DNA of 64,000 nt from Halopseudomonas xinjiangensis (GTDB lineage Bacteria > Pseudomonadota > Gammaproteobacteria > Pseudomonadales > Pseudomonadaceae), in NCBI RefSeq assembly GCF_900104945.1, contig NZ_LT629736.1, forward strand, positions 2,755,001 through 2,819,000, read 5' to 3'. A model generated the notes under the pieces. The model did not search any database, was not told where the DNA came from, and saw nothing but the letters and a program-made list of their open reading frames with translations. This document shows positions 4,661-54,468 of this stretch, one piece after another. The number at the start of each line of letters is the position of its first letter. Within the stretch, counting starts at the first letter, position 1. Position numbers and translations under genes: made by a program.

Positions 4661-5077
4661 TTAACCGGGCTCAACGTCTGCAACCGAGGTATTTCGACTC
4701 ACCTGTTCCGGCGCGCCAACGTAATGCAATTGACCGCTTATCTGCGCGCCGATCACCATTTCCATGGCCTGGTAATACAGATCGCCGGTAATCCGAGCCT
4801 TGGTATCGAGCTCCAGATGCTCCAACGCATGAACGTCACCTACCACCTGGCCGTTCACTAACACGCTAGGCGCCTTGATGATGCCTTCGACATAACCATG
4901 CTCGCTGACCCGAACCAGACCCTGATCCGTCTCGATGTCACCTATGATACGACCGTCCACCTGCAAGGCACCGGTGAACCGCACGTCGCCGCGCAGCTCG
5001 GCTTCCTGAGCAATAATGGTGGTCTTGCCGCTGAATTGACCGATATCGGCCCGCTTGTGTTTATCGTTTCCAAACAT
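4661..5077 (-). CDS. Bactofilin family cytoskeletal protein
   Basis: Bactofilins form non-nucleotide-dependent filaments that localise wall-modifying or polysaccharide machinery. The protein shows the polymer-forming beta-helix core, with repeating short G-D-I/V, G-x-I/V and V-x-G turns from about residue 15 to 115. The chosen ATG at 5077 gives 138 residues; an in-frame ATG at 5122 would add 15 residues (153 total). Both have possible ribosome sites (AAGG five bases before the inner ATG, GAAGG before the outer). The inner start gives the usual short polar tail before the core. In Pseudomonas the gene normally follows the DUF6776 gene directly; here two extra genes intervene. Confidence 0.85.
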   Translation of the reverse strand: MFGNDKHKRADIGQFSGKTTIIAQEAELRGDVRFTGALQVDGRIIGDIETDQGLVRVSEHGYVEGIIKAPSVLVNGQVVGDVHALEHLELDTKARITGDLYYQAMEMVIGAQISGQLHYVGAPEQVSRNTSVADVEPG

Positions 5078-5329
5078 CGGAACCTTGCTCCCCTTTCCGC
5101 CCGCTCGATACTGAGCGGACATGTTACCTTCATTCGGCCAAATGCAACGCCATCCGGATTGTATTTCGTGCTCCAGGTGGACCTGCGAAAACGCAGCTTC
5201 ATCTTACAACGCAGCCAACCCTATTTCTGTGTGCTGCGGCTCAAAGGCAGAGCGCCTGACGCCGGCGCGCAACGGGGAGCGACGCGCCGACCGACCTACC
5301 AGGCTTAACCCACGCAGCACATCGTCTAG

Positions 5330-6310
5330 CTAGGCTTTCCGCACAGAGTTGGCGGGAAACCATTTCCGCACAGCCGCTTTCAGCTTGGTGAATCCTTTCG
5401 TACGAACCAAGGCTCCCGTGCGCACAGCGTTGGCCTTGAGCAAGGAGAGTTCGCCGGGCCTGTACATCTCGTTGGTCTCGATGCAGTAAACAGGCTTGCC
5501 TGTTAGCGACATGATTTCGATCGCCTGCTTCTTTTCGCTTTCGATGAACAGGCGTGCCAGAGGCTCCTTCGAGTAGATCTCGGCTTTGAATTTGTGATGG
5601 ATGTTCAAGCGACGCCGCTCTTCAGCAGTTGGAAGGTCGAGCATGTGCAACTTGCCATAGCGAACGCCGTGGCGCTCAAGCCAGTCCTCGGTCTGAGCGC
5701 GATATTTTTCCAGGCGACTGGTCACCAGATGTCCCACTTCGACTGACGGGATAAATAGCGGGTGCGTTTTACCGAGAAAGCTCAGGTAATTCGGTCCGTC
5801 GTCATTTTCTTCATTGGTCGGATCGACGCAAAGCACGCCATCGATATCGAGACAGGCCTGGGCAAGATAGGGATGATGCATGATGTTCCACTCGAACATC
5901 CGTGGTTGTTCGACCAACTCGAAGTGGACGTCGACCATGTGCCGATTGTTCTTCTCGGCAAAAGCGGCAAGCGTGACCACCTCCCCGGAAAACGCTGCCT
6001 TCACCTCTTCGACAGCATCGCGCAGCGAGTTGCCCGAACAGATACTGTCATCCACCAACAAGATCTTCTTCGCGTCCCGCGGGCGAGTGAGCGAAGCGTG
6101 CTTGTAGGTGCGGGTCTTGCCTTTCTTCAGTTCGTCGTTACGCAGGAACGACTGGACATCGGTCAACGGAATGTTGAGCTTGAGCGCTATGATACTCGCC
6201 GCGAGCATGCCGCTTCGTGGTATCCCTACCACCAGCTCTATGTCGTTGGGTATCTGGCATGCGCCCGCGGTACTGAGCCGCGACAGATCGTTCAAGCTTC
6301 TGTAATTCAT
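5330..6310 (-). CDS. Type I phosphoribosyltransferase fused to a HAD-like phosphatase domain
   Basis: The 326-residue protein has two enzyme-like domains. Residues 1 to about 145 are a classical type I phosphoribosyltransferase: the pyrophosphate loop is GIPRSG near 29-34 and the PRPP loop ILLVDDSICSGNSL is near 83-96. Residues about 150-275 resemble a HAD hydrolase: D155-x-D157 in LDIDGVLC (motif I), T197/S198 (motif II), a lysine near 242-248 (motif III) and an acidic pair near E257/E259 (motif IV). The ATG at 6310 is preceded by AAGGAG at good spacing, better than an upstream TTG. It follows a GT4 gene by 30 bases on the same strand. A role in adding ribose phosphate to a glycan or small acceptor and then dephosphorylating it is inference; the substrate is unknown. 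Confidence 0.75.
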   Translation of the reverse strand: MNYRSLNDLSRLSTAGACQIPNDIELVVGIPRSGMLAASIIALKLNIPLTDVQSFLRNDELKKGKTRTYKHASLTRPRDAKKILLVDDSICSGNSLRDAVEEVKAAFSGEVVTLAAFAEKNNRHMVDVHFELVEQPRMFEWNIMHHPYLAQACLDIDGVLCVDPTNEENDDGPNYLSFLGKTHPLFIPSVEVGHLVTSRLEKYRAQTEDWLERHGVRYGKLHMLDLPTAEERRRLNIHHKFKAEIYSKEPLARLFIESEKKQAIEIMSLTGKPVYCIETNEMYRPGELSLLKANAVRTGALVRTKGFTKLKAAVRKWFPANSVRKA

Positions 6311-6340
6311 GACTACTCCTTGCTTCAAAGCGGTAGAGGG

Positions 6341-7627
6341 TTACTCCTGCGGATAACTCCCGCATAGCTGCCTTGCACTGTTTGGCTTGACTGAATAGGG
6401 CGCCAGCACCTCTTCGTAGAGCGCCTGGTACTGGCGAGCGATCACTCGGCTGTCGAACTGACGGACGATCTTTTCCCGGGCGTTTCGAGCCATTTCGTCG
6501 TAGCTCTCCGAATGCGCGACCCATTCGACACCGTCTGCGAGACTCCGTGCCTCAAAAGGCTGCGCCTTGAAGCCGTCCTCTAGGTGGGTGACGATATCCT
6601 TGGGTCCAGTCGCATCGAAACAGACCACTGGCGTGCCGCAACCCATCGCTTCGGCAAGCGTTTTGCCAAATGCTTCCATCAGACTGGGTGCGACGAATAC
6701 ATCGGCAGCGGAATACAGCAGGCGTAGAGAAATACTGTCGTGGAGGAAGCCGAACGAGGTGTAATCGAAGCCCAGGCGGTCAATGATCGATTGCTCGAGC
6801 TTGCCGAAGAAACACAGGTGGTACTGCTCCGGATCGAGAAATTCAAGTGACTCAAGGTATTTACCGAAGCCCTTGTATGGATCGCGCGCATTCGTCGAGC
6901 CGGCCAGCACGATCTTCTTGCCCGTTTCGATGCCCAGCATCTTCCGCGCGATCTGCTTGTCGACCGGGAAAAATTCCGCGCTGTCGACGTTATTCGAAAT
7001 CGTGCGGACGTCGACATCATGGAATAGCTGACTGCGCCTTGCCTGCTCGGTCAACCAGGTACTGATGCCGACCACCTTCAGCGAAGCGGGCAGATATTTT
7101 TTCTTGCGGTTGAGCACGAAGCGCGACAGGTCCAGATCCGAGCGGCTGCCAAGCTGGTCACAGCTGCCGCACCCCGTCTCGAACTTCTCGCAGCCCATCG
7201 AGTAGTGGCAGCCACCCGTCATGGGCCACATGTCACGCATGGTCCAGATCAACGGCTTGTCGATTTTGGCGAGATGCTTCATGTCGATGAAACCAGCGTT
7301 GATCCAATGCAGATGGATGACGTCCGCGGCGCGGTATTCGGCGCTTCGCGTAAAATCTGCGCCCAACAAGCCGGTGCTGAACATGCCTGAGCTACGCTTG
7401 GGGTAGAAGCTGGCCAGCGATTGGTCTGCCTGACTCCGGGCGAGACTTGCAACCATTTGAAGCTTGTTGGTGTTGGTCGAGGCGACCGATTCATCGCCGT
7501 GTGTGGCCCGGCTATTGGTATAGACAACCGAATCGATCCCGATCGAGCGCATCGCCTGGTGTAACCAGTAGGCACCCCTCGCCGCGCCACCGGTGAGTTC
7601 ACCAGCCACTACGTGCATTACCTTCAT
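6341..7627 (-). CDS. GT4-family glycosyltransferase
   Basis: This is a retaining GT-B glycosyltransferase of 428 residues, probably cytoplasmic or membrane-associated and acting on a surface polysaccharide or lipid-linked glycan. The N-terminal acceptor domain opens with HVVAGELTGGAARGAYWLH. A cysteine-rich stretch around residues 140-160 (GGCHYSMGCEKFETGCGSC) is shared with WcaC-like capsule transferases. The donor domain carries the EX7E motif in MEAFGKTLAEAMGCGTPVV. The ATG is preceded by GGGAG. The stop lies 30 bases before the phosphoribosyltransferase-HAD gene, suggesting one transcript. The sugar and acceptor cannot be read from sequence. GC content looks lower than the flanking argC block, by eye only. 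Confidence 0.85.
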   Translation of the reverse strand: MKVMHVVAGELTGGAARGAYWLHQAMRSIGIDSVVYTNSRATHGDESVASTNTNKLQMVASLARSQADQSLASFYPKRSSGMFSTGLLGADFTRSAEYRAADVIHLHWINAGFIDMKHLAKIDKPLIWTMRDMWPMTGGCHYSMGCEKFETGCGSCDQLGSRSDLDLSRFVLNRKKKYLPASLKVVGISTWLTEQARRSQLFHDVDVRTISNNVDSAEFFPVDKQIARKMLGIETGKKIVLAGSTNARDPYKGFGKYLESLEFLDPEQYHLCFFGKLEQSIIDRLGFDYTSFGFLHDSISLRLLYSAADVFVAPSLMEAFGKTLAEAMGCGTPVVCFDATGPKDIVTHLEDGFKAQPFEARSLADGVEWVAHSESYDEMARNAREKIVRQFDSRVIARQYQALYEEVLAPYSVKPNSARQLCGSYPQE

Positions 7628-7935
7628 CCGCTCCCTGCCCTCCTGATCTTATAAATGCTCCCTGCCTTTCCTGGGGAACTACTGGTGCTTGGCGCTGGAT
7701 ATCTTGTTACAAAGCTTAGTAACCATTGTGGCGCGGTGGTTCCATTGGCGTGCCAGCATTAGGACAGCCTCGGGCAAACGCGCCCCTTGCGCGCGGCTAT
7801 GCATGGATGGACCGAGTGTCGAAATGCTCCAACACAGAGCGAGGGAGAAAGCGTCCGATCGGTCGGTTCGACGAATGACAACGAAGGCGGGAGGGGGCAC
7901 ACACGGAGGGGCCGGTTTGACGGTGGCGTGGCCGG
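7628..7935. other. 308-base region upstream of the glycosyltransferase gene
   Basis: No convincing gene was found. The region contains a direct repeat GCTCCCTGCC (7630-7639 and 7657-7666), which on the minus strand duplicates the purine-rich ribosome-site stretch. It also has a small inverted repeat GTTAC-N8-GTAAC at 7706-7723. No near-consensus promoter or T-tract terminator was recognised. A possible 73-codon minus-strand frame (7679-7900) has no good start or family resemblance. Confidence 0.45.
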
Positions 7936-8694
7936 TCAGGAGCCTGCGGTGACGGCCCAGTCGAAAGTCTGCTCGACCAGCAGCTTGTCGTTATGCTTGA
8001 CTCGCAGGCGGACCTGCTTGGGCGTGAAGCCTTGCGGCAAGGAGAGTTCGGAGTCCTGGCTGTTGGCCGGCACCACCTGAAAGTAGCGGAAATCCAGCGG
8101 CAGACCGCCATCATCTTCGGCCAACGTCATGCTCGACAAGGGAACGCTTGCAGGCTCGCCGCCCTCCTCGCCGAGAACGTCGATGAAGAGTCTGGCCTGG
8201 GTAGTGTCTGCCTCGTTCCCTACACGCGTGACCATGACCTTGTAACGAAAGACGCCGGGCTCGTCCGTTCCCTGCAACTCGAACGCCTGGAAACGTAACC
8301 CCGGCGCCATGGCTCGCGGCGACAGGGAACCGCGATAAACGGCCAAATCCTGCTGAACGCGGAACAATTGCTGCTCCAGGTCATGGATCATCACCTGGCT
8401 GCCCTTGAGCGACTCGCGTGATACCAAGAGGTCGACTTCCACCTGTCGATACTGTTGCGACACAGCTTCGAGGTCCAGTTGGGTCTGGGCCAGAGCGACC
8501 GCCAGCTCGTCTCGCTCGGCCCGTACCGCTTCCTGCGAGCGCAGTGCGGCATCCCAGCCAAGCCAGCCCGCGCCCGGAATGGATAGCAATACAAGCAGTG
8601 TCAGAAGCTGGCGCCTGAGCCGCTGCGCGCGGGTCTGATGGGGCACGACAACCAGATTGTGCCCACGTAGCGGCGGGCGGCGTCGCCGTTCCAC
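7936..8694 (-). CDS. DUF6776 family membrane-anchored coiled-coil protein
   Basis: A conserved Pseudomonas protein of unknown function, 252 residues. It has a basic cytoplasmic tail, one transmembrane segment (about residues 28-48) and a coiled coil (about 50-120, rich in Q, E, L and R). A C-terminal beta-rich domain ends in FDWAV. The topology is consistent with a single-pass inner-membrane protein with a periplasmic domain. The GTG start lies one base after the argC stop, so it is almost certainly co-transcribed and coupled with argC. Assignment to DUF6776 is from memory of the family and the argC neighbourhood. Confidence 0.75.
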   Translation of the reverse strand: MERRRRPPLRGHNLVVVPHQTRAQRLRRQLLTLLVLLSIPGAGWLGWDAALRSQEAVRAERDELAVALAQTQLDLEAVSQQYRQVEVDLLVSRESLKGSQVMIHDLEQQLFRVQQDLAVYRGSLSPRAMAPGLRFQAFELQGTDEPGVFRYKVMVTRVGNEADTTQARLFIDVLGEEGGEPASVPLSSMTLAEDDGGLPLDFRYFQVVPANSQDSELSLPQGFTPKQVRLRVKHNDKLLVEQTFDWAVTAGS

Positions 8695-20395: not shown

Positions 20396-20429
20396 CCCTC
20401 TAACGGCAAACCCCTAGAGTCGCCCGGCT

Positions 20430-20605
20430 TTCCAATCGCAGGGTGCCCGGCCAAGGCCGGGTGAAACGGGAAGTCGGTGCAACCCCGACGCTGCCCCCGC
20501 AACGGTAAACGATCGCAGGTCTGACCTGCAGAGCGCGTCACCAGCCACTGTGCTTCGGCATGGGAAGGCAACGCGCTTGAAGTCGTGAGTCCGGAGACCG
20601 GCCCT
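20430..20605 (+). ncRNA. Cobalamin riboswitch aptamer
   Basis: The leader has the hallmarks of the AdoCbl-class B12 element: a GGGTGCCC-type P2/P3 start, the B12-box region GCCCCCGCAACGGTAA near 20491-20506, GCCACTG and GGGAAGGC near 20550-20570, and the closing GAGTCCGGAGACCGGCC ending at 20603. Known B12 elements repress btuB when cobalamin is plentiful. It lies directly upstream of the B12 receptor gene. Confidence 0.92.
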
Positions 20606-20625
20606 GACGATTGCTGAGGTGACGC

Positions 20626-54029: not shown

Positions 54030-54386
54030 TTACTTACGGATCGGCTTGCGCGGACCCTTGCGGGTACGAGCGTTGGTCTTGGTGCGCTGACCGCGGACCG
54101 GAAGGCCCTTACGGTGACGCAGACCACGATAGCAACCCAGATCCATGAGACGCTTGACGTTCATGTTGATCACACGACGCAGGTCACCTTCAACGGTGCT
54201 CTTGGCTACCTCATTGCGCAGCAGATCGACCTGCTCCTCGCTGAGTTCCTTGATCTTTGCACTGGGGGCGATGCCAGTGGCGGCACAGATTTCCTGTGCC
54301 TTGGTCTGACCGATACCGAAGATATAGGTCAGTGAGATAACAGTATGCTTGTTATCCGGGATGTTGACGCCTGCAATACGGGCCAT
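54030..54386 (-). CDS. rpsM: 30S ribosomal protein S13
   Basis: S13 sits in the head of the small subunit and contacts the P-site tRNA and L5. The 118-residue protein starts [20 protein letters not shown] and ends in the basic [18 protein letters not shown] tail. It is the first gene of the alpha operon, preceded by a structured leader at 54422-54457. Confidence 0.97.
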
Positions 54387-54421
54387 CCAAATTACTCCGT
54401 CTGACAGCTACCTGACTCAAC

Positions 54422-54457
54422 CTGCACGTCACGTAAGTTGCGTGAAAAAGGGTGCAG
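54422..54457 (-). promoter_or_regulatory. Nested stem in the rpsM leader (alpha-operon leader candidate)
   Basis: Minus-strand RNA: outer arms CTGCAC/GTGCAG and inner arms TCACG/CGTGA with a 7-base loop. It lies 36 bases upstream of the rpsM start codon. In E. coli S4 represses alpha-operon translation through a leader pseudoknot; whether this element does the same is inference. Confidence 0.45.
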
Positions 54458-54468
54458 TAGGGTAGCGC

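What the first reader, a model, noticed from the sequence alone, without database searches (positions are those of the whole stretch)
5330..7627. Phosphoribosyltransferase-HAD fusion paired with a GT4 glycosyltransferase, inserted into a conserved block
One protein joins a classical type I phosphoribosyltransferase (intact PRPP loop) to a HAD-like phosphatase domain, and lies 30 bases after a GT4 transferase. A two-step transfer of phosphoribose followed by dephosphorylation is known for ribofuranose addition in O-antigens by dual-domain proteins, but there the transferase domain is a divergent fold. Here it is canonical, so this could be a different route to ribosylated glycans or another ribosylated acceptor. 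The pair interrupts the argC-DUF6776-bactofilin-erpA order usual in Pseudomonas and appears lower in GC by eye. A bactofilin lies directly downstream and could position such a system.
Basis: partly seen in the sequence, partly recalled or inferred. Interest (0 to 1): 0.72.

Follow-up and report, generated by a model that had tools for sequence, protein, structure and literature searches.

The report
Candidate new ribose-adding polysaccharide enzyme
A protein that joins a nucleotide-salvage-type phosphoribosyltransferase to a phosphatase recurs in bacterial slime-polysaccharide gene clusters, so it may attach ribose to these sugars by an enzyme of a different make from the known ones; this copy, with a partner sugar transferase, appears to have been moved out of such a cluster.

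Summary
Window 5330-6310 (-) encodes a 326-aa protein: a type I phosphoribosyltransferase (PRT; Pfam 3e-15), then a HAD domain that Pfam misses but that structure prediction and profile search place, weakly, near PNKP-type HAD phosphatases. It starts 30 bases after a GT4 gene. The pair splits argC-DUF6776-bactofilin-erpA in 2 of 30 loci read from its genus.

Relatives show what it is. PRT-HAD sits in exopolysaccharide (EPS) clusters in all 15 close Stutzerimonas-type loci and in 9 of the 10 genus genomes that have it, and near wzx or other sugar genes in 15-18 of 22 loci from other taxa. A GT4 like the window's sits in 7 of the 15 Stutzerimonas-type clusters. The window PRT-HAD groups with those clusters, not with its own genus. 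The window's genome keeps its EPS cluster, 35 kb away, but PRT-HAD is missing from its usual slot there.

Best reading: a PRPP-dependent two-step ribofuranose transferase for EPS, working like the known gPRT-PRP enzymes but not filed as a member: ordinary PRT domain, different HAD type, reversed domain order. Ribose transfer is unproven; a tempting published link (ribose in P. stutzeri A1501 EPS) failed when tested, and 14 of 23 genus copies lie outside EPS clusters.

The parts
5330..6310 (-). PRT-HAD fusion protein (P0001, 326 aa)
6341..7627 (-). GT4 glycosyltransferase (P0002, 428 aa)
   Evidence: 73-75% identical to the GT4 upstream of gmd in 7 Stutzerimonas-type EPS clusters
6203..6226 (-). 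PPi-binding loop of the PRT domain, GIPRSGML (residues 29-36)
   Evidence: R32 in 79 and G34 in 80 of 81 copies; role inferred from type I PRTs
6023..6061 (-). PRPP loop LLVDDSICSGNSL (residues 84-96)
   Evidence: D87 and D88 each in 80 of 81 copies; the phosphate-binding part is more variable, G93 is Gly or Ala in 74 and S95 is Ser or Thr in 63 of 81
5876..5905 (-). PRMFEWNIMH motif at the end of the PRT domain (residues 136-145), candidate acceptor site
   Evidence: P136 81/81, R137 80/81, W141 81/81, N142 80/81, H145 80/81; role inferred
5450..5863 (-). HAD phosphatase domain (about residues 150-287)
5828..5854 (-). HAD motif I CLDIDGVLC (D155 nucleophile, D157)
   Evidence: D155 79/81, D157 81/81; T197 79/81, K242 80/81, E257 81/81 complete the set
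7628..7938 (.). spacer between DUF6776 and GT4, one edge of the insertion
   Evidence: absent in 28 of 30 loci; only short chance-like repeats found
5123..5329 (.). spacer between PRT-HAD and bactofilin, other edge of the insertion
7939..8694 (-). DUF6776 gene (flank, not part of the system)
4661..5122 (-). bactofilin gene (flank, not part of the system)

Best explanation
The PRT-HAD protein is a two-step, PRPP-dependent ribofuranose transferase for a Wzx-dependent exopolysaccharide. The type I PRT domain moves 5-phosphoribose from PRPP to a sugar of the lipid-linked repeat unit in the cytoplasm, and the attached HAD domain removes the 5-phosphate, which leaves a ribofuranose (expected beta-linked). 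In this genome the gene was lost from its slot in the EPS cluster, and a second copy, together with a GT4 of the kind found in Stutzerimonas EPS clusters, was acquired into the argC-bactofilin site and now serves the EPS from outside. Shown: domains, conserved catalytic residues, EPS linkage of relatives, absence from the usual slot, clade of the window copy, selection. Inferred: PRPP use, sugar acceptor, ribose product, the direction of transfer, and that the relocated pair serves the EPS.
For: PRT and HAD fold support. PRPP Asp pair, PPi loop and HAD catalytic residues nearly invariant in 81 copies, not all independent. PRT-HAD beside wzy-like and GT2 genes in 15 of 15 Stutzerimonas-type loci (GH5 in 14; from a search that finds close relatives) and between manC and GH5 in 9 of the 10 genus genomes that have it. 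Wzx, a GT, Wza or ManC within 7 kb in 15 of 22 loci from other taxa, 18 of 22 when a GT seen by annotation or by eye is counted. A P0002-like GT4 is adjacent to PRT-HAD again, on the opposite strand, in a distant genome of the class (L141, 35% identity). In 93 genomes of two genera: PRT-HAD and the EPS wzy-like gene in 33, the latter alone in 2, PRT-HAD alone in 0, neither in 58. G000 lacks the gene at its EPS cluster (92 bases between manC and GH5) yet has it with the GT4 at argC. The window copy falls in a clade with the Stutzerimonas-type EPS copies (SH-aLRT 96).
Against: I found no biochemical or sugar data for a strain shown to carry it. Co-occurrence is partly trivial (same cluster), and only 2 independent changes exist in the 30 genus genomes put on a tree. 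14 of 23 genus copies lie outside EPS clusters: two argC pairs, ten at three other loci (L022 placed there by sequence only), L062, and L023 whose context was not fetched; several have broken PRPP loops. L038, L142 and L143 have no sugar genes found nearby. The published ribose in P. stutzeri A1501 EPS does not help: the A1501 pslA promoter occurs in 16 of 56 Stutzerimonas-genus genomes, none of which has PRT-HAD. G783 has the wzy-like gene without PRT-HAD. The family is rare: 10 of 398 genomes of the phylum, 6 of 369 of the class at E 1e-40.
Confidence: 0.5

Rival explanations
1. It is a base-to-nucleoside enzyme: the PRT domain makes a nucleotide from a purine-like base and the HAD domain dephosphorylates it, for salvage or for a nucleoside-like metabolite or signal tied to biofilm growth.
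For: The closest PRT structures are 6-oxopurine PRTs; the nearest HADs, PNKP/SAK, act on nucleic acid ends (function recalled).
Against: Neighbours are often polysaccharide genes and no nucleotide-salvage genes were noticed among those read by eye (not searched systematically). The column that aligns with the Lys of the KP motif of archaeal HGXPRT is Glu, Gln, Leu or Thr in most copies; Lys is not among the seven residues that account for 78 of 81 (that this Lys reads the purine is recalled, and the next column has Lys in 21 of 81). A conserved PRxFEWNxMH motif stands at the hood.
Confidence: 0.17
2. It is a regulator: a PRPP-sensing, PyrR-like protein that tunes EPS synthesis to nucleotide state, with a HAD domain that binds or trims a phosphorylated effector.
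For: Orphan paralogues with broken PRPP loops are under purifying selection, which fits roles other than transfer; weak PyrR similarity, 29 bits against a cut-off of 140.
Against: The catalytic residues of both domains are kept in most copies; the model shows only the two domains and a low-confidence C-terminal helix.
Confidence: 0.13
3. The protein makes polyprenyl-phosphate-ribofuranose as a lipid donor for a GT-C enzyme, as in the three-component pentofuranose systems.
For: Same PRPP-then-phosphatase logic (PMC11127046); Wzx genes stand beside it; the neighbour in L042 looks by eye like a GT-C-type membrane protein (no Pfam match).
Against: The known polyprenyl phosphoribosyltransferases are membrane proteins of another family (PMC11127046), whereas the model here is two alpha/beta domains. 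I did not search the clusters for GT-C proteins.
Confidence: 0.1
4. The window pair is an idle relic of horizontal transfer and no longer serves the EPS.
For: It lies away from the cluster, and the simple scan finds no promoter-like site before it.
Against: dN/dS about 0.03 and 0.07 between G000 and G009, intact motifs, ribosome-binding sites by eye.
Confidence: 0.05

Closest known systems
gPRT-PRP dual-domain ribofuranosyltransferases (Klebsiella O4/O7 enzymes; Bcs3 CriT/CrpP of Hib; Cj1432 of Campylobacter)
   Same: A PRT-like domain that uses PRPP and a HAD phosphatase in one protein, in polysaccharide clusters; two-step phosphoribosyl transfer then dephosphorylation (passages of PMC11127046, PMC11231755, PMC10299916, PMC12096443). 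The CriT catalytic core is itself described as resembling PRTases in arrangement (PMC10299916).
   Different: CriT/gPRT is described as a new GT fold; CrpP has a 98-residue helical cap and keeps only the first Asp of DxD; in Bcs3 and Cj1432 the HAD precedes the transferase. Here the PRT matches the ordinary Pfam PRT family, the HAD is small and PNKP-like with full DxD, and it follows the PRT. No known enzyme of this kind was among the hits shown, but I did not superpose or align one directly.
Type I phosphoribosyltransferases of the XGPRT/HGXPRT kind
   Same: Fold, PPi loop, PRPP loop.
   Different: Fused HAD, conserved PRxFEWNxMH hood motif, base-contact Lys position not conserved, EPS context.
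PNKP / Swiss-Army-Knife HAD phosphatases
   Same: HAD motifs, weak profile and fold match.
   Different: No kinase or ligase domain; fused to a PRT.
Three-component pentofuranose systems (PPPRS + PRP + flippase + GT-C)
   Same: PRPP donor and HAD-type phosphatase logic.
   Different: Membrane-bound transferase of another family and a GT-C enzyme are needed; the transferase here is a soluble-type domain. GT-C partners were not searched for.

Membership tests
gPRT-PRP ribofuranosyltransferases | gPRT domain that diverges from ordinary PRTs (new GT fold) | tested here: not met
   PF00156 E 3.4e-15; the 50 Foldseek hits shown are ordinary PRTs. Not superposed on a gPRT; PMC10299916 says CriT also resembles PRTases in arrangement
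gPRT-PRP ribofuranosyltransferases | HAD PRP domain with inserted helical cap (98 residues in CrpP) | tested here: not met
   152-aa HAD model, 41 residues between motif I D155 and motif II T197; PNKP on top, CrpP not among the 50 hits shown (cap from PMC10299916 passages)
gPRT-PRP ribofuranosyltransferases | HAD domain before the transferase domain, as in Bcs3 and Cj1432 | tested here: not met
   PRT about 1-145, HAD about 150-287
gPRT-PRP ribofuranosyltransferases | gene lies in a polysaccharide cluster | tested here: met
   relatives; the window copy itself has only the GT4
gPRT-PRP ribofuranosyltransferases | transfers Ribf-5-P from PRPP to glycan, then dephosphorylates | not testable with these tools
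   needs enzyme assay
Type I PRT superfamily | Pfam Pribosyltran, PPi and PRPP loops | tested here: met
Purine salvage PRT (XGPRT/HGPRT) | purine-contacting Lys of the KP motif | tested here: inconclusive
   aligned column mostly E/Q/L/T, but the alignment could be off by one and the next column has Lys in 21 of 81; role of the Lys recalled
HAD phosphatases | DxD, Ser/Thr, Lys and acidic motif IV | tested here: met
   D155, D157, T197, K242, E257
Retron/defence PRTases (PADLOC) | match to defence PRT models beyond the PRPP-loop region | tested here: not met
   matches cover about residues 53-123, best E 1.5e-4; none for GT4

The most novel reading that the evidence does not exclude
A second, separately evolved family of ribofuranosyltransferases: an ordinary nucleotide-salvage PRT was turned into a glycan phosphoribosyltransferase and fused to a PNKP-type HAD, occurs in alpha- and gammaproteobacteria with EPS clusters, and can be moved as a GT4 + PRT-HAD pair to alter an EPS from a distance. 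Paralogues with broken PRPP loop but intact HAD, beside EPS copies with worn HAD motifs in the same genomes, would then split the two steps between proteins.
Probability: 0.4. Interest if true: 0.78.

Novelty: new variant of a known kind. Interest (0 to 1): 0.62.

Why it matters
The 2024 discussion in PMC11127046 says that all beta-linked ribofuranose residues its authors identified were accounted for by the PRPP-using gPRT-PRP enzymes, while pentofuranose side chains came from lipid-donor systems. A further enzyme family of different make would show that PRPP-fed ribosylation of glycans was reached more than once, or diverged further than known, and would let ribose be predicted in environmental EPS from genome sequence. 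It is also small (326 aa) and easy to test.

Tried and rejected
Link to published ribose in EPS: P. stutzeri A1501 EPS has 15.2 mol% ribose, 3.4 mol% in the pslA mutant (PMC8249394, passages). I searched its published 27-base pslA promoter site, up to 3 mismatches, in 56 genomes of the Stutzerimonas genus: 16 hits (G812 exact), none in the 23 genomes with PRT-HAD, and the G812 cluster is a different one. Rejected as support. That G812 is the A1501 species is inferred from the exact match.

Bactofilin as a positioner: rejected, it is there without the pair. Low GC as a sign of transfer: not distinctive; the gene tree is the better evidence. Defence system: PADLOC matches are partial; Pfam GT4-conflict passes its cut-off (28 against 26 bits) but lies far under the ordinary GT4 match of 78, and PRTase-CE is under its cut-off, 13.7 against 27. 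Mobile-element borders: only chance-like short repeats. Promoter: one site in the scan, not before the pair, 1.4 expected by chance. Viral structure search: separate PRTs and PNKPs of phages, nothing decisive. Co-occurrence as a statistical test: dropped, 2 independent changes only. The tree is a quick one with long branches; distant rows are unsure. My ORF caller mislabels some high-GC antisense frames, so counts of neighbours come from tblastn, whose queries include proteins of L136, L138, L141 and L144 themselves (these match by construction; the queries from L138, L141 and L144 have Pfam support). Paper searches that found no description of a type I PRT-HAD protein in polysaccharide clusters: (open-access PMC only, listings read). 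Seen of papers: passages of PMC11231755, PMC10299916, PMC12096443 and PMC8249394; passages and the first part of the Discussion of PMC11127046. Kelly et al. 2022, the founding gPRT-PRP paper, was not read; what I say of it is recalled or comes through papers that cite it.
Full report
What is there. Two genes on the - strand, GT4 (6341-7627) and PRT-HAD (5330-6310), 30 bases apart, each with a ribosome-binding site by eye. The PRT domain scores 3.4e-15 against PF00156. The AlphaFold model of the whole protein has mean pLDDT 85, and the 50 Foldseek hits shown are all PRTs, chiefly XGPRT, HGXPRT and other 6-oxopurine enzymes. The HAD domain is invisible to Pfam in the window copy. Its own model (pLDDT 90.5) has Pnkp1 and T4 PNKP entries as the first four hits, E 5e-3 to 1.1e-2, none under 1e-3; a profile search of the PDB finds Pnkp1 as its only hit up to E 1 (E 0.0022). 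The HAD residues D155, D157, T197, K242 and E257 are present in 79 to 81 of 81 copies (named and unnamed records of the same species are both in this set, so copies are not all independent).

The insertion. In the window's genus 36 of 37 genomes have DUF6776. Of the 30 loci returned, 28 show argC-DUF6776-bactofilin-erpA without a gap, and only G000 (the window) and G009 hold the pair. So the interruption is real and confined to one lineage of the genus, and bactofilin is a bystander.

Where the relatives live. PRT-HAD is in 10 of 37 genus genomes at E 1e-20, 23 copies. Nine of the ten carry it between manC and GH5 in an EPS cluster with wzy-like, GT2 and wecG genes and, where the stretch reaches, fcl, gmd and wzx (gmd and wzx are beyond the contig end in L050). 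The tenth is G000. One search, a search that favours close relatives, gave 19 loci; the 15 Stutzerimonas-type ones all have it directly after wzy-like and GT2 genes, 14 with GH5 behind it. Seven of the 15 (L024, L026-L030, L034) also have a GT4 73-75% identical to P0002 upstream of gmd, in six of them directly after wzx; two of the others (L025, L036) are too short to tell. L210 shows a whole cluster: wza, wzc, ugd, wzx, GT4, gmd, fcl, wzy-like, GT2, PRT-HAD, GH5. Pfam supports the names wzx, wecG, manC and GH5; gmd, fcl, ugd, wza, wzc and GT2 of this cluster are named by eye, and the wzy-like protein has no Pfam match, so its name is inferred from place and look. Of 22 loci from other taxa (L038, L040-L042, L071-L076, L134-L145), 15 have Wzx, a GT, Wza or ManC within 7 kb by tblastn; three more (L073, L075, L140) have a glycosyltransferase about 0.6-1.8 kb downstream by annotation or by eye; L038, L142 and L143 have none found, and L042 is a contig end with an unclassified membrane protein. 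These 22 are not independent: six (L134-L139) are one genus, and L073, L075 and L140 are one type. In L141, a distant genome of the class, the gene next to PRT-HAD, on the other strand, is again a P0002-like GT4 (35% identity). The family is rare overall: 10 of 398 genomes of the phylum and 6 of 369 of the class at E 1e-40, 41 of 72,556 plasmid records.

Co-occurrence. In the window's genus the EPS wzy-like gene is in exactly the 10 genomes that have PRT-HAD. In the Stutzerimonas genus (56 genomes; G829 has the contig of S. stutzeri NT0128, L024) PRT-HAD is in 23 and the wzy-like gene in 25; all 23 have both; G783 and the 71%-complete G804 have only the latter. This is weaker than it looks: the genes are usually in one cluster and the tree of 30 genus genomes needs only 2 changes. 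The informative case is G000: its EPS cluster (about 2,705,600-2,725,900 of its chromosome) lacks PRT-HAD, with 92 bases where about 1 kb should stand, and its only copy is the window pair 35 kb away. G009 has both the argC pair and an EPS copy, and the latter is on a long branch.

Origin of the pair. The window and G009 copies are sisters (100) inside a starred clade (96) with 15 Stutzerimonas-type EPS copies and L038, apart from the EPS copies of their own genus (quick tree). With the GT4 similarity this points to transfer of two genes of a Stutzerimonas-type EPS cluster into the argC site; how they moved is unknown. Both genes are under strong purifying selection since the split of G000 and G009.

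How it most likely works. Shown: both domains, conserved catalytic residues, EPS linkage of relatives, absence from the usual slot, constraint. Inferred: the PRT domain binds PRPP and passes phosphoribose to a sugar hydroxyl; the HAD domain removes the phosphate. The same logic is documented for gPRT-PRP enzymes in Klebsiella, Haemophilus and Campylobacter polysaccharides (passages in PMC11231755, PMC10299916, PMC12096443, PMC11127046). The profile alignment puts Glu, Gln, Leu or Thr where archaeal HGXPRT has the Lys of its KP motif, and aligns the invariant W141 of PRxFEWNxMH with the hood Trp. That the Lys reads purines is recalled, and the alignment may be off by one. I take this as a hint that the acceptor changed from a base to something else.

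Family membership. It works like a gPRT-PRP enzyme in outline but does not show three described features: divergent transferase fold, capped HAD, HAD-first order. One caution: PMC10299916 says the CriT catalytic core resembles PRTases in arrangement, and I did not superpose the two, so distant kinship is not excluded. It is a type I PRT and a HAD protein by test, and not a defence PRT by test.

What speaks against. I found no EPS structure or sugar analysis for a strain shown to carry this gene (paper searches). A1501 ribose is not attributable to it. Of the 23 genus copies, 14 are outside EPS clusters: the two argC pairs, three at locus A (L045, L046, L051; beside an exchanger and a sugar-kinase-like gene), four at locus B (L055, L057-L059; beside gltX), three at locus C (L060, L061, and L022 by sequence only; beside sco/cytochrome genes), L062, and L023 (context not fetched); locus names are by eye. 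At loci B and C the four copies with a readable loop have damaged PRPP loops, and L055 and L059 did not match the loop pattern at all, yet the pairs compared are constrained, HAD more than PRT. Locus A copies keep the loop. These may be phosphatase-only or regulatory derivatives, and they leave room for the rival readings.

Noticed in passing
L045, L046, L051, L055, L057-L061: Orphan PRT-HAD paralogues at three fixed loci; those beside gltX and sco have damaged or unrecognised PRPP loops with intact HAD motifs and are under purifying selection, while EPS copies L053, L054 and L056 of the three genomes with four copies keep the PRPP loop and the HAD Asp pair but have worn residues around HAD motif I and after it.
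   Followed up: partly
L050:12700-13671: EPS-cluster copy in G033 with the HAD nucleophile Asp changed to Gly.
   Followed up: no
L073 and L075 (Rhizobium plasmids), L140: PRT-HAD of about 430 aa follows a caspase-family gene and precedes a small protein and a glycosyltransferase; VgrG of a type VI secretion system is annotated next in L075. L075 also has a D-ribose ABC transporter gene 8 kb upstream.
   Followed up: no
Stutzerimonas genus: The A1501-type pslA promoter (16 of 56) and the PRT-HAD EPS cluster (23 of 56) never occur in the same genome, as if two EPS types exclude each other.
   Followed up: partly
window 20425-20620 (+): Cobalamin riboswitch, 106.9 bits.
   Followed up: no
window 54354-54460 (-): Alpha-operon ribosome-binding-site RNA, 38.8 bits, just above threshold.
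   Followed up: no
L072 (Bosea plasmid): Cas6/RAMP CRISPR-type genes lie 3-8 kb before PRT-HAD and its EPS genes.
   Followed up: no
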